64,000 nucleotides of DNA, taken from contig JACDDS010000010.1 in assembly GCA_013816805.1 (NCBI GenBank), positions 1 to 64,000 on the forward strand, written 5' to 3'. Source of the stretch: Chitinophagales bacterium (GTDB taxonomy: Bacteria > Bacteroidota > Bacteroidia > Chitinophagales > UBA10324). The first letter of the stretch is position 1. Each line of letters starts with the position of its first letter. Positions 1 to 12,203 of the stretch are shown here, one piece after another. A program made the position numbers and the translations under genes. A model generated the notes under the pieces. It searched no databases, was not told where the DNA came from, and saw nothing but the letters and a program-made list of their open reading frames with translations.

Positions 1-55
1 CATACTCCTTGAGTATCCTGATAATTTGTTCTTCGGTGAATTTTTCTCTTTTCAT
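1..55 (-). CDS. IS3-family transposase OrfA, N-terminal fragment (cut by window edge)
   Basis: The 18 visible residues begin MKREKFTEEQIIRILKEY. This matches the N-terminal helix of the helix-turn-helix OrfA protein of IS3-family elements, IS407-group style (KxRFTEEQIIxILKE), which binds the IS ends and is normally joined to the DDE integrase OrfB by frameshifting. The gene runs left out of the window, so neither its integrity nor orfB can be judged. It is transcribed away from the CRISPR array. Confidence 0.75.
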   Translation of the reverse strand, partial: MKREKFTEEQIIRILKEY

Positions 56-119
56 GACCAGTTAAATTTAAAACTGTATTTTCTATTTTTAACTGGCCCT
101 ATTTTATGGGGAGCTTACA
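1..119 (-). mobile_element. IS3-family insertion sequence, one terminus (partial)
   Basis: This is the upstream end of an insertion sequence whose body lies left of the window. Read on the minus strand it starts TGTAAGCTCCCC, the TG...CA style of IS3-family termini, and leads after about 64 bp into a transposase start codon. An inverted repeat (CCAGTTAAA near 58-66, TTTAACTGG near 88-96) lies inside the end. The exact outer boundary is inferred from the terminal CA at 118-119; the other end and the target duplication cannot be seen. The element abuts the CRISPR array, with 27 bp between its end and the first repeat. Confidence 0.7.
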
Positions 120-146
120 CGTTGTCGATTCCGATATAACATCTCA
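120..146 (+). promoter_or_regulatory. remaining CRISPR leader-proximal sequence
   Basis: Only 27 bp separate the insertion-sequence end from the first repeat. Leaders of type I arrays usually span one to several hundred bp and carry the array promoter and integration signals, so this is at most the leader-repeat junction. No promoter-like element is visible within these 27 bp. Pre-crRNA transcription would have to start inside the insertion sequence or beyond it. That this is the leader side is inferred from repeat polarity. Confidence 0.5.
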
Positions 147-3100
147 ATTTCAATTCCACATTGGTGCGATTAAAAGTTTCATCTGCCCTTACCGAACGGG
201 TTAATATCCAATTTCAATTCCACATTGGTGCGATTAAAAGGTAGCAAAGAACCGGGAGGAGATATGCTACTTCGATTTCAATTCCACATTGGTGCGATTA
301 AAAGCCTATGATGGTATTCCACTCTACCCTATCAGCCAGATTTCAATTCCACATTGGTGCGATTAAAAGTATGCTGAAATAAGCAGCTGTTCGGCTTTAC
401 TTAAATTTCAATTCCACATTGGTGCGATTAAAAGCTTCCGGACGTGATGGAAAAGGTGGAGTTCGGGTTATTTCAATTCCACATTGGTGCGATTAAAAGC
501 AGGTAATCCGGTGCAGCAATCGTGACTACCTCGATATTTCAATTCCACATTGGTGCGATTAAAAGCCTTTACAGCATCGGCAGTGAGCTTAACCGTTACC
601 TCATTTCAATTCCACATTGGTGCGATTAAAAGCATCATCTTATACTTATCCGAGAATACCTCTACCAATTTCAATTCCACATTGGTGCGATTAAAAGATG
701 AGTAAAAAAACTGTTAGTAATGCCCCAACATAATTTCAATTCCACATTGGTGCGATTAAAAGAGCTGACTGCCCTGGGCAACGGTGCTTTTAAATGATTT
801 CAATTCCACATTGGTGCGATTAAAAGCGCTCAATCCTAATATAAAAAGGGATATTGAGAACAATTTCAATTCCACATTGGTGCGATTAAAAGTGTTTCAT
901 CTGCCTTTACCGAGCGGGTGAGAATCCAATTTCAATTCCACATTGGTGCGATTAAAAGTAAATGTGATAACGCAGGCGTATGGATGGCAAACTTATTTCA
1001 ATTCCACATTGGTGCGATTAAAAGACGGTATCAGCTGTGGTATCACCAAAGAAGGCGATAATTTCAAATCCACATTGGTGCGATTAAAAGCAGGCGCTGA
1101 ATATGTATTGTTATCACTTCAAAATGGATTTCAATTCCACATTGGTGCGATTAAAAGAGTTCACCCTTTCGATGCATGAGAAAGCGAACCTCATTTCAAT
1201 TCCACATTGGTGCGATTAAAAGCCATTACAGTTATCATCGAGGCTATTATTACATATCTATTTCAATTCCACATTGGTGCGATTAAAAGGGATGGCGCCT
1301 TACAAACTTTACAGTCCGAAACTCATATTTCAATTCCACATTGGTGCGATTAAAAGCGATAATCCTGCCGCATATAATATGGAATAGTCGCATTTCAATT
1401 CCACATTGGTGCGATTAAAAGATTGGGCTGGGAAACGTGCCAGTGACAAATTTAAACAGATTTCAATTCCACATTGGTGCGATTAAAAGCCACCTGCAGA
1501 AAGGAGCATCGATATTGTAAATGTATTTCAATTCCACATTGGTGCGATTAAAAGAGTCTGCCGGCATCGGTGCATATCACTTGCGTAAAAGAATTTCAAT
1601 TCCACATTGGTGCGATTAAAAGTGCACGGTGGCATAGATCTGATTTTTTACAAAGCAATTTCAATTCCACATTGGTGCGATTAAAAGTTGATTGATGATC
1701 ATTCTTTGTGCAGGAAAATATTTATTTCAATTCCACATTGGTGCGATTAAAAGTGTGGAGAGGGATTTTCTTGCGAAAGATATTTGTCTATTTCAATTCC
1801 ACATTGGTGCGATTAAAAGTTACTTAGGATTACAATTTCTTGCTACACAATTCATTTCAATTCCACATTGGTGCGATTAAAAGAATTTTTAACAACAGAT
1901 GGTGCAGGAAATACGTCAATTTCAATTCCACATTGGTGCGATTAAAAGCATCATCCGGATCCGTAAACACATAAGAGAAAGTTCATTTCAATTCCACATT
2001 GGTGCGATTAAAAGAACAATTCCCATATCATCCTTATTCACCCAAAACGGATTTCAATTCCACATTGGTGCGATTAAAAGTATCCTCATGCACTCCTATT
2101 GCAATGAAAATTATTTCAATTCCACATTGGTGCGATTAAAAGCATCAAACAGTGCAGGTGTGAGATCATAGAAATATAATTTCAATTCCACATTGGTGCG
2201 ATTAAAAGTAGCATTGCCGAAAATATCCGGAACACAATCGCCGATTTCAATTCCACATTGGTGCGATTAAAAGACGGCACCGGATCAGGAACAAGCTTTT
2301 GTTCAAATCCATTTCAATTCCACATTGGTGCGATTAAAAGAATAATAAGAATGTGCATCCTAATGCTACTGAAGTCCATTTCAATTCCACATTGGTGCGA
2401 TTAAAAGGGAAAACTCAGAAATGTTTTCAGTGATATCAAATCCCATTTCAATTCCACATTGGTGCGATTAAAAGTGCGTATTGAAAAGTCCGCGATCTCC
2501 ATACCAGTTCAATTTCAATTCCACATTGGTGCGATTAAAAGTATATTCTGGCTAAAACATAATTCACAATCGGTGAATTTCAATTCCACATTGGTGCGAT
2601 TAAAAGCTAATCTGATCGTGGATGTAAAAGGTGATAAGGGTATTTCAATTCCACATTGGTGCGATTAAAAGTATATGATTATCCGCGCTGAAGGCTTCAA
2701 CCTTAAATTTCAATTCCACATTGGTGCGATTAAAAGTTTATTCTTATCAGTGCTTTGATCAGCATAGATCTCAATTTCAATTCCACATTGGTGCGATTAA
2801 AAGCCAAATAGGAAATATTGTAAAATCTAAAGGCCCTGACGATTTCAATTCCACATTGGTGCGATTAAAAGAATGCGCGTACTGCTTGCAAAGGCAGTGG
2901 AAATATTATTTCAATTCCACATTGGTGCGATTAAAAGGTTCCCTGGTACGCTGTATTCAATGAACTGTACTGAGATTTCAATTCCACATTGGTGCGATTA
3001 AAAGACAAGTAAAGTGCGATGGAATTTGTAGCCATATCGATATTTCAATTCCACATTGGTGCGATTAAAAGTACCGCCCAGAACAATAAGAAACAGGCCC

Positions 3101-3469
3101 AGGGAGCGAATTTCAATTCCACATTGGTGCGATTAAAAGTTTTTAAAACCGTGCGATGGATTTTGGGAGCGCTTTAATTTCAATTCCACATTGGTGCGAT
3201 TAAAAGACATACACCATACCGTAATTGATAGCTTAGTTCACGGATTTCAATTCCACATTGGTGCGATTAAAAGTTTCGGAGATTTCGGAGGATCAACGAA
3301 CAAACTTTAATTTCAATTCCACATTGGTGCGATTAAAAGTGCGGGCCGACCAGCAGATAAATCTCGGCAACGGAATTTCAATTCCACATTGGTGCGATTA
3401 AAAGCAGAATTAGAGGTCATTACTTAAAACCAATCACCAATTTCAATTCCACATTGGTGCGATTAAAAG
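147..3469 (+). CRISPR. Type I-B CRISPR array, 51 repeats / 50 spacers
   Basis: Fifty-one copies of a 30-bp repeat begin ATTTCAATTCC and end GCGATTAAAAG. They are separated by 50 spacers of 32-38 bp, mostly 35-37. All copies I read are identical except repeat 15 (1061-1090), which has T to A at repeat position 8. The last eight bases, ATTAAAAG, resemble the 5' handle (AUUGAAAG-like) left by Cas6 cleavage, so the array is read left to right with its leader end at 147. Spacers are unique except that spacer 1 (177-210) and spacer 12 (893-928) are homologous. No degenerate terminal repeat is seen. Short open frames across the array are read-through of repeats and are not genes. Confidence 0.98.
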
Positions 3470-3665
3470 CCGTTAAATAAATTTCCTTAAATATACAGTT
3501 TTCAAACACTTATAAAATCCAAAGACCCATTTTTTTAGGTCTATTCCCGTCAACCACCAATACTGCAATTCAAGTGCGGGATCGACAATACACCTTTTCA
3601 ATGCCGGGAACAGATAAAACTTCTTTTTTCTATCTAATATGTCTCAGATCTGGTCACATCGACGC
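3470..3665. other. array trailer / cas2 3' flank, no gene seen
   Basis: This AT-rich spacer separates the last repeat from the stop codon of cas2. It receives transcripts from both sides, the array on plus and the cas operon on minus. The only structure I see is a 5-bp hairpin (AGACC at 3523-3527, GGTCT at 3538-3542) with a T-rich loop, too weak to call a terminator. Confidence 0.5.
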
Positions 3666-3929
3666 CTATAAAAACGTTTCTATCTTGTTTTTCTCGCATC
3701 CTACAATCTGCTTTTCGAGCCACTTCTCATCCCGGCTCTTGAAAATGATGATGCTGTCCTTTTCAAGAACCAAAAATTTTTTAGCACGGCTGATCAGCTC
3801 CTTCAGTTTCACCTCTGTGATCTCACCTTCAAATACCGAGTTCTGAATCCAGTTCAGGTATTGCCGGCAGAGCTTCAGCATCCTGCCAACTCTCCGCGCT
3901 TCAATGTCGTAAACGAGGATTACATACAT
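3666..3929 (-). CDS. cas2: CRISPR-associated endonuclease Cas2
   Basis: This 87-residue protein is the usual Cas2 size. It has a ferredoxin-like fold start (MYVILVYDIE) with the conserved Asp at residue 8, then RVGRMLKLCRQYLNWIQNSVFEG, the typical Cas2 pattern. In the family, Cas2 bridges two Cas1 dimers in the spacer-integration complex. It is the last gene of the cas operon and begins immediately after the cas1 stop, so it is translationally linked to cas1. Its 3' end faces the trailer end of the array. Confidence 0.96.
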   Translation of the reverse strand: MYVILVYDIEARRVGRMLKLCRQYLNWIQNSVFEGEITEVKLKELISRAKKFLVLEKDSIIIFKSRDEKWLEKQIVGCEKNKIETFL

Positions 3930-4934
3930 CTACCACCACGTTTTAAAGGGTTTGTATGTCTCCACCCCCAGAATGTGCTTGCTGAGCTTATAACACTCCA
4001 GTTTTACCAGGTGCTTGTAGCTGACGCTCCTCTTCAGCGACCTATGCTGTATGGTTTCATTGATCCGTTCTTCGAAAGCCTTAACAAAAGTCTTTTTCGC
4101 TGCATCCTTCATTATGCACCGGTTCAGCTCGATGCGGAAATCATCCGCCTGAAGCTGCTTTTTATTAAGCACCGTAAAGATGGTACGGTCAACCAGGAGC
4201 GGCTTGAAAATTTCCGCAAGGTCAAGCGCAAGGGAATACCGGCGTGCTCCCGGCTCATGAAGAAAGCTGATGGTAGGATTGAGCTGGGTATGATAGATCT
4301 GTCCCAGGCAGAGGCTGTAGCACATCATGTTTCCGAATGAAATGAGTGCATTCACCTCGTTGGAAGGAGGCTGTTTGGTGCGGTTGCCCATCGTAAATTC
4401 ATCGATGATGGTTTCAAACGCCTGGTAATAGCATTGCCGGATGTTACCTTCCAGCCCCATCAGCTCGTCCACCTCCGTATAACCGTGCAGCATTTCCATG
4501 AACTGCTCGATGGAATCGATTTGCGGCTGCACATTTTTCTCACGGTTATTGTAGTAGCGCAGGTTTTTGAGCATGTTAAAAGCGGCACCCTCTATAAAGA
4601 GCCGCGCCAGCACCATCCTTTTTTCTTTTTTCACGTGGTGCATCGTCTGTTCGATCTGTACCTTGCCTGCAAGCAAGTAATCCTTTGGCATGAAGGACCC
4701 GGTATAGTGCTCGTAATAGTCGAAGAAATGGACGGCGACCTGGCTCTTGCCCAGGAAGTTGTAAAGCGCAGAATTGGCATCAAGTGCGCCATAGCAATAG
4801 AGGTCGCTCACGCTTTCAATAGGGATGTATTTCGGAGGCAGCTCTTTTCCTTCCTCATCCTGAGGCGTGAATTGAAGGGTATTGTCTTTGCGGCTCATTC
4901 GCCCTGCATTGAAGAGGTAATAGGTTTTTTTCAT
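3930..4934 (-). CDS. cas1: CRISPR-associated endonuclease Cas1 (type I-B)
   Basis: The integrase of spacer acquisition, 334 residues from the chosen ATG. The start gives MKKTYYLFNAGRMSRKDNTL, the classic I-B Cas1 N-terminus; a TTG 45 bases upstream would add 15 unrelated residues. The metal-binding triad is visible: Glu in GLEGNIRQ (about 162), His in FLHEPGARR (about 226) and Asp in LDLAEIF (about 238). The gene sits between cas4 and cas2, as in most I-B loci. Its base composition (one counted 60-base row, 4441-4500, is 53% GC) is much richer than that of cas3-cas5 in the same operon. Confidence 0.96.
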   Translation of the reverse strand: MKKTYYLFNAGRMSRKDNTLQFTPQDEEGKELPPKYIPIESVSDLYCYGALDANSALYNFLGKSQVAVHFFDYYEHYTGSFMPKDYLLAGKVQIEQTMHHVKKEKRMVLARLFIEGAAFNMLKNLRYYNNREKNVQPQIDSIEQFMEMLHGYTEVDELMGLEGNIRQCYYQAFETIIDEFTMGNRTKQPPSNEVNALISFGNMMCYSLCLGQIYHTQLNPTISFLHEPGARRYSLALDLAEIFKPLLVDRTIFTVLNKKQLQADDFRIELNRCIMKDAAKKTFVKAFEERINETIQHRSLKRSVSYKHLVKLECYKLSKHILGVETYKPFKTWW

Positions 4935-5009
4935 AAGGAAATGGTTACTGTATTTATCAAAAAAATCCTTTACTGCCAAGCCGCATCCGAATGGCTTCGC
5001 GATCCGTCT

Positions 5010-5516
5010 TCAATATTCCTCTGACCAGCAGAAATCGAAGTAGGAGCAATACCGGCATTTCTTCTTTTCAATTTTGGGCGGGCAAGCTGGCGATGCGGTA
5101 AGTTCTTCAATATTGCGGATAGTTTTTTCTATATATATCTCATCGTCTTGAGTGAGCAATACGTCGGTGCATTGATGAAAGACCGGATATTCAATTTTCC
5201 CCGATACTCCCTCGATACCACTTTTTTTCAGCAGATAAATGTAGTATTTCACCTGCCACCCGTGTGCCACTTCGCGTGCGGCTGAGCGCTTGGTTTCATG
5301 GATCACCTTATTTTTTGCATCGTAAAAATCAATCTTTGAGCCGTCTATCTCCACTTCTGAGAACTTATCTGCCCTTCGCTCATATGAATTTTCATGGATG
5401 AACCTGCCATCTGCGACGAGGTCGGAGGTGTGCTCCATGGTGATGCCATTTGCAAAGAGCCACAGCTTGCGCCTGCAGAGGTGGTAGTAGGCGATGTGGG
5501 TGGCGGTGAGGGGCAT
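5010..5516 (-). CDS. cas4: CRISPR-associated exonuclease Cas4
   Basis: A RecB-like nuclease of 168 residues that in this family trims prespacers and helps select the PAM and orientation. Four cysteines that would hold an Fe-S cluster are present: C14 and C154, C157, C163 in CRYCSYFDFC. The nuclease core shows DFYD, ETKRS (about residues 74-78) and the QVKYY motif (about 88-92). It starts 3 bp after the cas3 stop and lies directly upstream of cas1. Like cas1, it is GC-richer than the effector genes. Confidence 0.94.
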   Translation of the reverse strand: MPLTATHIAYYHLCRRKLWLFANGITMEHTSDLVADGRFIHENSYERRADKFSEVEIDGSKIDFYDAKNKVIHETKRSAAREVAHGWQVKYYIYLLKKSGIEGVSGKIEYPVFHQCTDVLLTQDDEIYIEKTIRNIEELTASPACPPKIEKKKCRYCSYFDFCWSEEY

Positions 5517-5519
5517 AGT

Positions 5520-7808
5520 TTAAAAGTTATCTTTATCATCTAACACTAATCCCAAATCTGAATCGTAGTTGCTAGTACACCATATTGACTTCGATTCTTT
5601 ATTATCTCCAATCCATATTTTATTTCTTTGATAGACTTTCCCATTTTTTCGGGCTTTTTGAAAAAGATAATTAGGGCAACTGATAACGTATTGGTTTCGG
5701 AAATACATAAATTCTTTGTAGTTGTCAAAGAAGCACTCTTTATGTTTATTCTTTTCTAAATCTTTGAATCTTTGAAGATTTTTTTCCAGATAATCATATG
5801 GATCTAAAACGTAAATATCAACTTGGGAATCAATGTCTCTGCTTTTCCACACATGCGTATTTTCTTCATCTTGTTCGGTTAGTGCTAAAGGAAGAATTAA
5901 CCAATTATCGATAATATGATCTTTTAATTTATCTGCATTAATTTCCGTTCGGCTTGAAAACTTTGGCAATTCCTTATAAATCTTATTAACTAAATCAACC
6001 AATTCAAAAGCATTATAAGATTTAGGCTGCAGAAGATTAATAGTATCTTCCAAAGGTTTACTCATCGTCCAACCTTTCTTCATTATATAGTTTCCATAAG
6101 GAGCAGGATAAACTTCATTATCTTTGAATGGTATAATTACATTTAGTTTACCTGTTGCATTAATAAACTCAAATCTTGATAATCTGCCAATTCTTTGAAC
6201 TAATCTATCAATAGGGCATATATCAGTTATCATATAATCAGCACTTATATTAACGCTCATTTCTCCAATCTGAGTAAGAATAGCTATTCCATTTGCCTTT
6301 TTATGTCGCCATGCCTCTTTGCCAAAATCATCCAATAGTAGTTCCTCTTTTTTTAATTTATCTGGTTCAGTAAATCTGCTATGATATAAAACTGGCAACT
6401 TTCCTCTATTCTTGAACCATTGATAAAATTCCACTGCTTTGGCGACGGTATTTGCATAAATGATAGTAGGTTGATCTAAAGATTTAACCAACAAATCCTG
6501 AAGTTCATTTACAACCTTATATTTCTTGATGTTTTCTATAGAACATCTTATTCTCAAATTCTCTGAAGTATCTTCTTTAATTTCCTTTGGTTTAAATCCT
6601 GTTGATTGATATAATTCCAAAGATGATTGAGGTAATGAAGCACTCATAATCAAAACCGGCACTTCCAAAAGTTTCAACACTTTTAATAACTGGAGAATAT
6701 TAGCCTGAGTAAATTCATCATAAAAATCAGCTTCATCAATAACAACACAACTATGGGCTAAATTAAACGTAATGGAATGATGGTCTTCTCTGCTATGTGT
6801 AAGCGAGATTAATAAATGATCAATTGTACAAATAGTAACGGGAGTTTCTAAAAGCCGGGCAAATTCATGTTGCAGCTTTGCTTTATGCTCCGCTTCATAA
6901 GATTTCTTAGCTGTCTCAAAATGTCTCACAAACCAAGCACTGGAATGATATAAACCTGTTTCTGATAAAGAGCTTGCGACATTTATGGATAAAGCATTTG
7001 AAGTAAAACGTGTTGGCATTGCAATAACTAAACGATCAGCTTTGTCGTTTTCAATTTGTTTTTTTGCCCAAAGTAAAGCTGCATCTGTTTTCCCTGAACC
7101 TGTTGGTGCACGTAAAAGAAGTAACTCATCCTGCCAGTTATCTTCAGCTATTTTCTGAACATTTTTTCTTTCCCATTTGAGATTAAACCGATAATCAAAT
7201 TCCCCAAATTCCGGAATTTCTTTTTTATCTTCTAATATACTTGCCCGGTGATCTGCTAATTGCAAATAGCTTCTTACTCCAGCAAATTCATAATTTTTTA
7301 AAATAGAATAACTGAAGTTTTCAGGATAGTTTAAGTCAAATGTTGTATAGCTTAATCTTTTGAATTCATTCCAAAATTCCTTGTATTTCCCATTTTCATC
7401 TTTTTCCCATCTTGTTTCCAATGATTGCCCTAATTTCCCATGATGTGCTGCTATTGATATTTTCAAAACTTCTGAAAAGGGATATTTATCATTTTGATGC
7501 AAGTAAAGACTTTCCATTTCATGACGTATGCCTGTTTTTTGCAAGTACCCACCATTAACCTTTTGAGTTTGTAAATAAATCTCATTTTCTTTCTTACAGG
7601 CAATTTGCCACTTCAAATGCTTCTTACCGTCGTCATGAAATTTTGCTGCAACCTTCAAACGCCTCTCTAAACTTTTACCAGTTAGCTGTTCATACTTTTT
7701 TATAACAAATGAATGTTTCTGAATAATTTTTTTTGCTTCGTTAGTTACATTTTCTATGTGCTCTTTTAGCGTAGTGCCTTTCGGTTTAGCTAATGGTTCA
7801 TTATTCAT
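5520..7808 (-). CDS. cas3: CRISPR-associated helicase/nuclease Cas3 (HD + SF2 helicase)
   Basis: The 762-residue effector nuclease, recruited to R-loops formed by Cascade to unwind and degrade target DNA. The N-terminal HD nuclease has H17, H58-D59 in FHDDGKKH, H122-H123 and D186. The helicase follows with Walker A APTGSGKT (about 234-241), the DEAD box (358-361), motif III SAS (389-391) and motif VI QRIGRLSR (about 538-545). Both parts look intact and are in the standard order. The start overlaps the cas7 end by 8 bp. It is strongly AT-rich (row 6481-6540 is 27% GC), unlike cas4 and cas1 downstream. Confidence 0.96.
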   Translation of the reverse strand: MNNEPLAKPKGTTLKEHIENVTNEAKKIIQKHSFVIKKYEQLTGKSLERRLKVAAKFHDDGKKHLKWQIACKKENEIYLQTQKVNGGYLQKTGIRHEMESLYLHQNDKYPFSEVLKISIAAHHGKLGQSLETRWEKDENGKYKEFWNEFKRLSYTTFDLNYPENFSYSILKNYEFAGVRSYLQLADHRASILEDKKEIPEFGEFDYRFNLKWERKNVQKIAEDNWQDELLLLRAPTGSGKTDAALLWAKKQIENDKADRLVIAMPTRFTSNALSINVASSLSETGLYHSSAWFVRHFETAKKSYEAEHKAKLQHEFARLLETPVTICTIDHLLISLTHSREDHHSITFNLAHSCVVIDEADFYDEFTQANILQLLKVLKLLEVPVLIMSASLPQSSLELYQSTGFKPKEIKEDTSENLRIRCSIENIKKYKVVNELQDLLVKSLDQPTIIYANTVAKAVEFYQWFKNRGKLPVLYHSRFTEPDKLKKEELLLDDFGKEAWRHKKANGIAILTQIGEMSVNISADYMITDICPIDRLVQRIGRLSRFEFINATGKLNVIIPFKDNEVYPAPYGNYIMKKGWTMSKPLEDTINLLQPKSYNAFELVDLVNKIYKELPKFSSRTEINADKLKDHIIDNWLILPLALTEQDEENTHVWKSRDIDSQVDIYVLDPYDYLEKNLQRFKDLEKNKHKECFFDNYKEFMYFRNQYVISCPNYLFQKARKNGKVYQRNKIWIGDNKESKSIWCTSNYDSDLGLVLDDKDNF

Positions 7809-8868
7809 TTGTCACAGCATTAGGCGTCTCATCAACTTGCGCAGCCTGCGGAAAAGCCTCGGTAAATGTTTTTATATTTTCATTACCACCATTTGGATCA
7901 AAGAGAGTAGATTTTTCTAATTCTTCTAAGGCTCTTTTATATGCTGTTTGAACGCTCACTTCACCAGTAGTATCATCACCAACAATATAAAATGCATCCC
8001 TTGCTTTTAATTCTTCAATGATATTTTTTTGCTGAGTTTTCCCTATTTCTGTATCATCATAATATCTGCAAGCCTTCCTACTCATCTTTGTATCAAATAC
8101 AATCAATACTTTTTGTGGTTCTCCTGTTGAAGCGTTACGAGCTTCATTTGCATAATCTATCATTGATTTGGTTGCTTCTAAAAACAGCTTAACCCTTCTT
8201 CTTCTTTCAGCTTCATTTACATGCTTTACATATTCTGTTTTTACATGAAACCCCTTTTCGTAACTGAACTTTTTTGAAGCACTTAAATTGGAAATGTCAA
8301 GAAAAAAATTCATTAACATCATATCAGAATCGCTTTGCTCTTTTGTAGCCAATGCTTGCTTATCATCAGTTAAAGTGTCAACTTTTAATCTCACTAATAA
8401 GTCTCTTGTAATCTGACTTTGTTGTGTAGCGACCGCAGGTGTTACAGTTAATGGTGCTGTTCTTCTTCCTGAATAACTGCCTGCTGATGGATGCATGAAC
8501 CCACCCATATCAGCCCGCAAATCAACCTCTATAGCATTTCCAATGCCATCACCATTGGAAACATAAGTATCACTTAATTTCTTGCCATTAGAAATCTCAA
8601 CTTGATTATATTTCTGTTTTTCCTTTTTTTCTTCTCCGTTCGTTTTTAATACTACTTCAATATCATTAGTCTTGTTTTTTTCTTCTTCATTAATGCGGTG
8701 AATAGCACTAAATAAAACATGACGTTGCATTTGCCCGGAAATGTAAACACGTCCATCATTACGCCTTTTAATTGAGGAGGCATTACCCAATAATTTTTCA
8801 CCGCCATTGGCAATGTGATTCTCCATTGGTGCGAGAATAGAAACTAGTATTCCTTTTATATTTTCCAT
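7801..8868 (-). CDS. cas7: Cascade backbone protein Cas7 (Cst2/DevR family, type I-B)
   Basis: The 355-residue backbone subunit polymerises along the crRNA guide. The N-terminus reads ILVSILAPMENHIAN..., followed by GNASSIKRRNDGRVYISGQMQRHVLF, the hallmark of the Cst2/DevR branch of Cas7. A glycine-rich stretch with DLRADMGGFMHP (about 117-129) follows. It lies between cas8 and cas3 with a 24-bp gap to cas8. The antisense strand over codons 11-17 carries 15 of 17 bases of the CRISPR repeat core (see findings). Confidence 0.93.
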   Translation of the reverse strand: MENIKGILVSILAPMENHIANGGEKLLGNASSIKRRNDGRVYISGQMQRHVLFSAIHRINEEEKNKTNDIEVVLKTNGEEKKEKQKYNQVEISNGKKLSDTYVSNGDGIGNAIEVDLRADMGGFMHPSAGSYSGRRTAPLTVTPAVATQQSQITRDLLVRLKVDTLTDDKQALATKEQSDSDMMLMNFFLDISNLSASKKFSYEKGFHVKTEYVKHVNEAERRRRVKLFLEATKSMIDYANEARNASTGEPQKVLIVFDTKMSRKACRYYDDTEIGKTQQKNIIEELKARDAFYIVGDDTTGEVSVQTAYKRALEELEKSTLFDPNGGNENIKTFTEAFPQAAQVDETPNAVTNE

Positions 8869-8892: not shown

Positions 8893-10461
8893 TTAATGAG
8901 AAGCATCTGAAATTTCTTGGTCTTCATTTTCCAAGACCTGAGGAGAAGGATTGGAAGTATCCTTAGGCTGAGATGGATTTCTTATTCGTGCAAAAGCCAT
9001 TAGTATACTCTTTGCATCTTCCATACTCATTTCACCAGTTAAAAATGCTTCCTGGAAAATGGTAGATTCAGAAGGTGCAGAATCTCCCGAAAGCCTGCCT
9101 GCTCTTGTAATTACATTAAGTATCTCTGCTGGTCTTCTTGAGCCGAAGATGCTACTTTCAAGCTCAACTAAACATTTTGCTTTAAGTTCATATTTCAGAT
9201 GCGGTTTTTTCTGATTGTTAGCTTCTTTTAAGCCAACAAAGTAAGCTATTTGATTAAGCCATTTGCCTAGCACCAAAGCAGATTGCACCACTTCCTTTTT
9301 GATTTTAATTTGGTTCATTTCATTCATAAAAAATGTATTGAATAGTTCAATTAATTCAGGTTCATATTCAGCTCTTATTGATAGAAAATCCTTAAATGTA
9401 GATTTATTGAATAGTTGTAAAAATCGGTTGCTAAAAAGGTTAAAAGCCTCTTTACGGCTTTCAATACCCTTTTTATCTTTTTGTTTAGTTTCATCAAAAG
9501 GATGTATAAGTTTACTTTTTTGAATAGCAAAAACGATATCAGAAAGTTTATTCTCTTTGGCTAAATCAATAATATAATGATTGATGGTGACTGATTGCGC
9601 TTTGCCATATTGTATTAGATAAAGTGGTTTTTCTTTTAAACTTTCCAAAACTTCTTCTCCTTTTTTACTATAACCAGCTTCTTTACCCCATCTGCCTATA
9701 GCGCCTAATAAACCTACAACACCAAATGCAGAATTTTTCGGAGCATAAGGGAAATTACCGTCATAAATAGGTGGTCTGGTAAAAGTTGGTTTTTGACCTT
9801 CTTTTCTAAAAACCTTTTTTTGAAGCAATTTCTTTTTATTGATATTTCTATCAAGCATCATATTATAGAATTCAATAAACACCTTCATTTGATCTAAAGT
9901 TAAGTCAGGTATTATAGCAGTAGGAATAGGAGCGCTATCCCTTTTTTCTTTATAGCCAAAACATGGTTTTAAAGGTGTGCTTGTTGTTACGGCACAACAA
10001 AGAAATTCCAGAAACGATGTTTTTGTATAACCCTGAGAAGCATTGCCATTATTAATTTTTCCAGATATAGGTACAATGCTCATTGTTAGGTTACAATCCT
10101 TATACTTATCATTTCCAATAATAAATTTTTCCTTATGAATTCTCGAGATGTCAGAATTTAGTTTTAAGTTATTTCTTATTGTTTCTATGGCATCCCAAGT
10201 TTCAGACGCATCGTAATCAGATGTTAGAGTATTCGGAGCTAAATAAACGCCTTTGGAAGTGTCGCCATTTTTGGTTGAGGAAAACTCAAAGTTTATTATT
10301 TCATCATCCAGCGTATTAGTTGCCTTCAATCTAAAATGATTTAATCCTTCTTCCAAATACTTTTCAAACATAGTTGTCTGAACTTCTTGAACATTTTCTA
10401 AATTTTCTCGAAAAAGAACTAATGCTAAACCATATATGCTAAATGGATGTGTAAATTTCAT
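8893..10461 (-). CDS. cas8: Cascade large subunit, Cas8 (Cst1/Cas8b-like)
   Basis: A 522-residue protein in the position of the large subunit, between cas5 and cas7. In type I-B the large subunit recognises the PAM and recruits Cas3. The N-terminus, MKFTHPFSIYGLALVLFRENLENV, resembles the Cst1-type Cas8 of Bacteroidota I-B loci, but sequence conservation in this family is poor and the call rests mainly on size and position. Visible features are a CC pair in LEFLCCAV and a Lys-rich central segment. The C-terminal tail is acidic. Its start overlaps the cas5 stop by 4 bp (ATGA). Confidence 0.8.
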   Translation of the reverse strand: MKFTHPFSIYGLALVLFRENLENVQEVQTTMFEKYLEEGLNHFRLKATNTLDDEIINFEFSSTKNGDTSKGVYLAPNTLTSDYDASETWDAIETIRNNLKLNSDISRIHKEKFIIGNDKYKDCNLTMSIVPISGKINNGNASQGYTKTSFLEFLCCAVTTSTPLKPCFGYKEKRDSAPIPTAIIPDLTLDQMKVFIEFYNMMLDRNINKKKLLQKKVFRKEGQKPTFTRPPIYDGNFPYAPKNSAFGVVGLLGAIGRWGKEAGYSKKGEEVLESLKEKPLYLIQYGKAQSVTINHYIIDLAKENKLSDIVFAIQKSKLIHPFDETKQKDKKGIESRKEAFNLFSNRFLQLFNKSTFKDFLSIRAEYEPELIELFNTFFMNEMNQIKIKKEVVQSALVLGKWLNQIAYFVGLKEANNQKKPHLKYELKAKCLVELESSIFGSRRPAEILNVITRAGRLSGDSAPSESTIFQEAFLTGEMSMEDAKSILMAFARIRNPSQPKDTSNPSPQVLENEDQEISDASH

Positions 10462-11267
10462 AAACTTTCAATTTTTAAATCAACCCATCCTTCATTTGTT
10501 CCTAAATACAAGGGAGAAATTAGTTGATTAGTGCATTCATTCAAAAGTTTTAATAATTGAGGTGTAGACGTGACTATATAACCGTATTTATTTTTGACAA
10601 TTATATATTCCCTTGTTTTTGGACTTGAATAATAATTTGACATTTTTTCATAACTTTTTTTCATTAGATCAGCTTCTAATTTTTTAATCTCTTTTTTTAT
10701 TTCCTCTTGTTTTTTTTTATTTGCCTCTTTTTGTAATGATTCCCTTATTGTTTTCGATTTCGACTTAATTATTTTTAGTTCTTCTCTACCACTTTTTAAA
10801 ATATTGACTTCTTGTTCCAAGGAGTAATCATAATTTCTGGAACCATCAAAATGCCTTATATCATTATGCTTTAAATGTTGCGTCCAATAATCCTCATATG
10901 AACCATAATAAGATGGTTTGAGTAATAATTGCTCAATTTTCAAATGATGTTGCAGTAAAGGCTTATAACCTACAGGGGTTTTAGCAAAATTTAAATTTAA
11001 CTTGTATTGCTTCTTATAGTGACTTTTTAAATTTGTGATAATCGGGTTCCTTTCATCATCAGTAAAATGCCACCCTAATAAATTTTCCAACATTCCATAA
11101 ATCATAAAATCAGATGGCTCTCGTTGACTCCTATAATATGCACCAGGCATGGAAGTGACTAACGACAAAGGAGCAAGCGGTTCAATGAATAAACTCGCTT
11201 TATGATTAAGTTCGGGCTTGTCAAAAAGTACTGATATGTCAATTGTGTTTGTCATTTTAATGCTCAT
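10458..11267 (-). CDS. cas5: Cascade subunit Cas5 with coiled-coil insertion
   Basis: A 269-residue Cas5, which caps the 5' handle of crRNA. Diagnostic are EPLAPLSLVTSMPGAYYR followed by DFMIYGMLENLLGWHF (about 54-68), the Cas5 helix that inserts after the first strand, and the C-terminal PLYLGTNEGWVDLKI strand. Residues about 150-210 are almost entirely Lys/Glu/Leu/Ile and should form a long coiled coil, unusual for Cas5. It overlaps cas6 by 4 bp and cas8 by 4 bp. It is AT-rich, contrasting sharply with cas6. Confidence 0.82.
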   Translation of the reverse strand: MSIKMTNTIDISVLFDKPELNHKASLFIEPLAPLSLVTSMPGAYYRSQREPSDFMIYGMLENLLGWHFTDDERNPIITNLKSHYKKQYKLNLNFAKTPVGYKPLLQHHLKIEQLLLKPSYYGSYEDYWTQHLKHNDIRHFDGSRNYDYSLEQEVNILKSGREELKIIKSKSKTIRESLQKEANKKKQEEIKKEIKKLEADLMKKSYEKMSNYYSSPKTREYIIVKNKYGYIVTSTPQLLKLLNECTNQLISPLYLGTNEGWVDLKIESL

Positions 11268-12040
11268 TTAACCTCCCCCAGCCCCATCCCCATCGCATTC
11301 TTCTCCCCAAACCCCGCATAATATCCTACCCGCTGTAATTCTACAGGTGCTTTCAGCTCGAAGTCAAACATCCACCCGCGGATATTCGTGGCGGCTTCCG
11401 TATGGTCTTTGATCCTGATCAGCCTCGAACGTGGGGATGATAATACCTTCAATGTACATTGCTCCGGCAGGAAATCTTCCGAACTTCCTGCAACAGCATA
11501 AACACTGTGGTGCTTGTGAATGAGGTTCTGCACCAAAAAATTTTTATAATAGACATGGTCCGGTGAGAGAAACTCGTATCCTTCGCCGCCTTCATGGATG
11601 CGCGAGCGGGTGATGCACAGTGGCGAAAGCAGCCGGTAACGCATGGTATCGCTGAAGGCCGGAGCAGGCAATACTTCAATGGCAGCGATTGTAAAGCTTA
11701 CATGGCTCACGCGGTCGCCGATCATGCATTCCTGGTTGCGGAAGCAGCCTGTAACAAAATGCGCTACCTGCTCATCGATGAGAAAGCTGATAAGGAGCTC
11801 CGCATTCGGTGCGTTGAGCGCCATCCGGTCGCCCTCCATCGTGAAGGAGCATTTCAGCTGCGAGAAGGTAAAGAGCTTGAAGCGCTTGCCTTGGTAAGAA
11901 TATCCCTGCTCATGAAGCCACTGCGAGAAAGCCGGATCACCATGGAAAAGACATTTATAAATCCATGCCGAGACGGCATATTGGTAATTAACAGGCAGCA
12001 CGCTTTGAGGAGGAACCTGAAAAGATAACCTGATACGCAT
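11264..12040 (-). CDS. cas6: crRNA-processing endoribonuclease Cas6
   Basis: A 258-residue Cas6, which cuts pre-crRNA inside each repeat to leave the 8-nt ATTAAAAG handle. The start MRIRLSFQVPPQSVLPVNYQYAVSAW fits the family; an upstream in-frame ATG would add 22 residues unlike Cas6. The C-terminus GYYAGFGEKNAMGMGLGEVK is the glycine-rich RNA-binding loop of RAMP proteins. It is the first gene of the operon. It is GC-rich (row 11341-11400 is 57% GC), like cas1 and cas4 but unlike cas5 directly downstream. Confidence 0.93.
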   Translation of the reverse strand: MRIRLSFQVPPQSVLPVNYQYAVSAWIYKCLFHGDPAFSQWLHEQGYSYQGKRFKLFTFSQLKCSFTMEGDRMALNAPNAELLISFLIDEQVAHFVTGCFRNQECMIGDRVSHVSFTIAAIEVLPAPAFSDTMRYRLLSPLCITRSRIHEGGEGYEFLSPDHVYYKNFLVQNLIHKHHSVYAVAGSSEDFLPEQCTLKVLSSPRSRLIRIKDHTEAATNIRGWMFDFELKAPVELQRVGYYAGFGEKNAMGMGLGEVK

Positions 12041-12059
12041 GAAATATAATTGAAGGCAA

Positions 12060-12088
12060 CAATATAAAAAATTACAGCCGCCCTGCAA
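12060..12088 (-). promoter_or_regulatory. candidate promoter of the cas operon
   Basis: On the minus strand a TTG (12086-12088) is followed after 19 bp by TATATTG (12060-12066), close to the Bacteroidota -33 TTG / -7 TAnnTTTG pattern though not perfect. It lies 20 bp upstream of the cas6 start codon. It is the only candidate I see for the whole eight-gene operon. Confidence 0.35.
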
Positions 12089-12203
12089 TAACAATTTTTT
12101 AAACACTTTTGACTTCCTTAGAAAGGGAGAGAGTCGCTATGGCTGCGATAAATTGGGAATGATCTTTGGCAGCCCAGCCTGGAAGTGGTAACGGGGAGTA
12201 CTG

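What the first reader, a model, noticed from the sequence alone, without database searches (positions are those of the whole stretch)
177..928. Spacers 1 and 12 target homologous coding sequence and differ by synonymous changes
Spacer 1 (177-210) and spacer 12 (893-928) match at 29 of 34 aligned bases. Read on the minus strand in the same frame, both encode WILTRSV-x-ADE, with x Arg in one and Lys in the other; the other four differences are silent (ATA/ATT, TTA/CTC, CGT/CGC, with two changes in the Leu codon). This pattern shows two diverged relatives of one virus or plasmid gene, sampled separately at the same protospacer position. It fixes the frame and strand of the target and suggests that a mutated escape lineage was re-captured.
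Basis: seen in the sequence. Interest (0 to 1): 0.7.

Follow-up and report, generated by a model that had tools for sequence, protein, structure and literature searches.

The report
Two CRISPR spacers, one diverging target
A bacterium's CRISPR memory holds two near-copies of the same short target, captured separately from two already diverged relatives of one unknown mobile element; this is an ordinary outcome of CRISPR immunity with earlier examples.

Summary
Spacer 1 (177-210) and spacer 12 (893-928) match at 29 of 34 bases and are the only related pair among the array's 68 spacers. The array belongs to a type I-B (PGING-type) CRISPR-Cas locus read on the minus strand. Both spacers start at the same base on the PAM side and differ in length only at the far end, as two independent captures at one PAM would. 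Duplication plus mutation is excluded: the repeats carry 2 changes in 2070 bases. The coding reading WILTRSV[R/K]ADE is the best frame but is not "fixed": random substitutions leave an equally good open frame about 10% of the time. No protospacer was found, so the target, its frame and the "escape lineage" story remain inference. Scattered 15% divergence suggests related lineages rather than a stepwise escape mutant. New: the array continues on another contig, split by an insertion sequence inside a spacer, so spacer 1 is not its end. Near-identical spacer pairs have been reported before.

The parts
177..210 (-). Spacer 1 (older of the pair), crRNA-strand sequence TGGATATTAACCCGTTCGGTAAGGGCAGATGAAA
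893..928 (-). Spacer 12 (newer of the pair), crRNA-strand sequence TGGATTCTCACCCGCTCGGTAAAGGCAGATGAAACA; 29/34 identical to spacer 1
147..3469 (-). CRISPR array in the window: 51 repeats of 30 nt (50 identical, one with a single change at 1061-1090), 50 spacers of 32-38 nt
3470..3665 (-). Leader-side region between cas2 and the first repeat
   Evidence: inferred from position and repeat orientation
3666..3929 (-). Probable cas2 (87 aa), assigned by length, sequence character and position next to cas1; not scanned against family models
3930..4979 (-). cas1 (type I-B family, TIGR03641)
5010..5516 (-). cas4 (TIGR00372)
5520..7808 (-). cas3 helicase with HD nuclease region
7801..8868 (-). cas7/csp1 (type I-PGING)
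8893..10461 (-). cas8/csp2 (type I-PGING; full-length match, 363 bits, below the curated cut-off of 462)
10458..11267 (-). cas5p (type I-PGING)
11264..12106 (-). cas6
1..119 (.). End of an insertion sequence (start of a transposase-like reading frame on the minus strand) that splits the next older spacer; the rest of the array lies on contig C28

Best explanation
Spacers 1 and 12 are two independent acquisitions, by one type I-B adaptation machinery, of the same protospacer (same strand, same PAM-side boundary) from two related but already diverged mobile-element genomes. The leader is at the high-coordinate end, so spacer 1 came first, and ten retained spacers separate the two captures. The older crRNA differs from the newer target at positions 6, 7, 9, 15 and 23; by analogy with characterised type I-B systems this should impair interference while leaving enough match to prime new acquisition. 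Shown here: the array, the pair, the common edge, the exclusion of chance and of in-array duplication. Inferred: the order of capture, that the target is coding and on this strand, the impaired interference, and any priming. Unknown: the target's identity and its PAM.
For: 29/34 identity, the only such pair in the array; chance 2.4e-13 per alignment. Common TGGAT edge on the side next to the crRNA 5' tag (repeat end ATTGAAAT) and a 2-nt length difference at the other edge. Repeats differ by 2 in 2070 bases, so P(at least 5 changes in a copied 34-nt spacer) is 3e-10. I-B cas set with cas1, cas4 and a probable cas2. In Haloferax type I-B the first 10 nt except position 6 must pair (PMC4390866). 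In Haloarcula type I-B a spacer of about 73% identity primes acquisition (PMC3936756); this pair is 85% identical.
Against: No protospacer was found, so PAM, coding frame and common target gene are untested. The order rests on the usual leader-end rule, not on strain comparison; none of the 15 other genomes held for the family carries this repeat or this cas8. Seed and priming rules come from archaeal type I-B systems, not this bacterial variant.
Confidence: 0.85

Rival explanations
1. Re-capture of a CRISPR escape mutant: the first virus was targeted by spacer 1, changed in the seed, and its escaped descendant was sampled again at the same site, perhaps through priming by spacer 1.
For: Differences at seed positions 7 and 9, which the Haloferax I-B rule says must pair; same PAM-side edge; the newer spacer carries the changed form.
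Against: Escape needs one change; here there are five scattered ones, four silent in the favoured frame, two (positions 15 and 23) outside any seed. That looks like ordinary lineage divergence. No target genome is at hand to decide.
Confidence: 0.2
2. Spacer duplication inside the array followed by point mutation.
For: Repeat-spacer units can duplicate by recombination (general knowledge).
Against: Lengths differ by 2 nt at one edge only; repeats carry 2 changes in 2070 bases, which gives 0.03 expected changes per spacer and P of 3e-10 for five; no other spacer is duplicated.
Confidence: 0.01
3. Both variants came from one invader, as two paralogous copies of a gene or repeat in the same genome.
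For: Paralogues that differ mostly at silent sites would give the same pattern; no target genome excludes it.
Against: Ten other spacers lie between the two, so they were not taken in one step; no other spacers of the array are related.
Confidence: 0.1
4. The target is read on the opposite strand (SSA[L/F]TERV[N/R]I) or is not coding.
For: That frame is open in both spacers and shares the wobble positions; random substitutions leave some open frame with at most one residue change 9.6% of the time.
Against: A codon model favours the minus frame by 4.5 ln units at omega 0.1.
Confidence: 0.12

Closest known systems
Near-identical spacers sp59 and sp63 in the array of Candidatus Methanomassiliicoccus intestinalis (PMC6336856)
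   Same: Two spacers of one organism's array with nearly the same sequence and a length difference
   Different: One mismatch there, five here; other spacers of that array have identified targets, this array has none
Type I-B primed adaptation (Haloarcula hispanica, PMC3936756)
   Same: A partly matching older spacer can drive new acquisition; same subtype with cas1 and cas4
   Different: Shown by experiment there; here only compatible with the sequence
Type I-B PGING-variant CRISPR-Cas (Csp1/Csp2/Cas5p)
   Same: Cas7/Csp1, Cas8/Csp2 and Cas5p family matches with cas3, cas4, cas1 and cas6 in one operon
   Different: Cas8/Csp2 scores below the curated cut-off, so a diverged member

Membership tests
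Type I-B (PGING) CRISPR-Cas system | Cas3 helicase with HD domain | tested here: met
   TIGR01587 303 bits; HD domain TIGR01596 39.5 bits, just under its cut-off of 43.45
Type I-B (PGING) CRISPR-Cas system | Csp1 (Cas7), Cas5p and Csp2 (Cas8) | tested here: met
   433, 133 and 363 bits; Csp2 matched over its full length but under its curated cut-off of 462
Type I-B (PGING) CRISPR-Cas system | Adaptation genes cas1, cas2, cas4 | tested here: met
   cas1 and cas4 by family model; cas2 by position and sequence character only
Independent acquisitions from one protospacer site | Common PAM-side boundary; too similar for chance, too different for duplication within the array | tested here: met
Independent acquisitions from one protospacer site | Protospacers at the same codon of homologous genes with the same PAM | tested here: inconclusive
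   no protospacer found
Primed re-acquisition after escape | Older spacer no longer interferes with the newer target but primes acquisition from it | not testable with these tools
   needs an experiment; only the mismatch positions are known

The most novel reading that the evidence does not exclude
The array records an arms-race step at one site: spacer 1 lost its grip through seed changes, and priming by spacer 1 led to re-capture of exactly the same protospacer from the changed lineage, so that an array can update a memory in place rather than only add neighbouring targets.
Probability: 0.12. Interest if true: 0.45.

Novelty: already known. Interest (0 to 1): 0.25.

Why it matters
It is a clean single-array example of repeated sampling of one protospacer from a diversifying invader, useful as an ordered pair for studying spacer choice and escape once the target is sequenced. 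By itself it adds no new mechanism. Recovering the missing older part of the array corrects the relative age of spacer 1.

Tried and rejected
Protospacer searches for WILTRSV[KR]ADE: five peptide-level patterns of differing strictness in viral contigs and one for the opposite strand, all zero. Two scans of genome contigs, zero. Own genome, exact and with up to 3 mismatches: only the two spacers themselves. Family (16 genomes) and order (398 genomes): nothing else. Phage and plasmid collections with the whole array: only weak or repeat-type matches; spacer 12 alone: a 17-base chance match. Two other spacers read as phage-like peptides were sought in viral contigs without result. No positive control could be run for the collection scans, so the zeros are weak evidence of absence. 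Other spacer pairs with slight peptide likeness (18/29, 14/C28_13, 44/46) fall within the range of shuffled sets. Duplication and mutation was rejected on the near-invariant repeats.

Full report
What is there. The window starts inside the older part of a CRISPR array (147-3469 in the window): 51 repeats of 30 nt and 50 spacers of 32-38 nt. Beyond it lie cas1, cas4, cas3, cas7/csp1, cas8/csp2, cas5p and cas6, all on the minus strand, with family matches of the type I-B PGING variant, and a probable cas2 at 3666-3929. The repeat read on the minus strand ends in ATTGAAAT, the usual end of type I-B repeats (established knowledge). The leader-side region (3470-3665) lies between cas2 and the array.

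The pair. Spacers 1 and 12 match at 29 of 34 bases. By chance this has probability 2.4e-13 per alignment, against about 1e5 possible alignments. The next best pair of all spacers, in both orientations, matches at 19 of 29, and in translated comparison only this pair exceeds shuffled sets (54 against at most 35).

Why two captures. On the crRNA strand both spacers start at the same base (TGGAT), next to the repeat end that becomes the crRNA tag; in type I systems this is the PAM side (established knowledge). They differ by two bases in length at the other end. The repeats, 69 copies in both parts of the array, carry two changes in 2070 bases. A spacer duplicated within the array would be expected to gather 0.03 changes; five or more has probability 3e-10. 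The divergence therefore existed before capture.

Coding frame. The opposite strand also has an open frame in both, SSALTERVNI / SSAFTERVRI, with the same wobble positions. A codon model prefers the minus frame (ln likelihood -61.0 against -65.5 at omega 0.1; -63.9 for the minus frame without selection). However, 9.6% of random five-substitution sets leave at least one open frame with at most one residue change. The frame is likely, not fixed.

Target. No match to the peptide-level patterns was found in viral contigs, in genome contigs, in the own genome and 398 genomes of the order with up to 3 mismatches, nor with the DNA in phages and plasmids.

Escape? The differences are at crRNA positions 6, 7, 9, 15 and 23. 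In Haloferax type I-B, positions 1-10 except 6 must pair (PMC4390866), so the crRNA of spacer 1 would be expected to fail against the spacer 12 target. In Haloarcula type I-B, a spacer of about 73% identity primed new acquisition (PMC3936756). The pair is thus compatible with escape and primed re-capture. Five scattered, mostly silent changes are more simply explained as divergence between related lineages met at different times.

Correction of the array. The genome has a second contig, C28, with 18 copies of the same repeat and 17 spacers, the last repeat (the trailer end) bearing one change. Contig C10 and contig C28 each begin inside one of the two ends of an insertion sequence. Each of the two IS ends occurs five times in the genome, every time within about 70 bases of a contig end, so five copies broke the assembly. 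The two flanks share CGTT and together make one spacer of normal length. The full array thus holds 50 + 1 + 17 = 68 spacers, and spacer 1 lies in its older third but is not its end.

Prior knowledge. Near-identical spacers in one array have been reported (sp59 and sp63 of Ca. M. intestinalis, one mismatch and one extra nucleotide, PMC6336856). This is a further, more diverged case of a known phenomenon, in an ordinary type I-B locus.

Noticed in passing
window 1-146 and L005 (contig C28) 1-124: An insertion sequence with five copies in the genome has split a CRISPR spacer (4-bp duplication CGTT) and the assembly breaks there; 17 older spacers and the trailer end are on contig C28.
   Followed up: yes
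window 2274-2310 (spacer 33); L028 4068-4095: Spacer 33 matches 27 of 28 bases in a PKD-type surface-protein gene of a genome of the same family (G002); the outer spacer bases do not match. Possibly chance, possibly a spacer from a related gene on a mobile element.
   Followed up: partly
window 1025-1060 (spacer 14) and spacer 13 of contig C28 (L005): They read GISCGIT and DISCGIS on the same strand, with most differences at wobble positions. Not significant against shuffled spacers, but may be a second, more diverged pair.
   Followed up: partly
window 8893-10461: None of the 15 other genomes held for the family carries this cas8 or this repeat, so the locus may have been gained horizontally.
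   Followed up: partly
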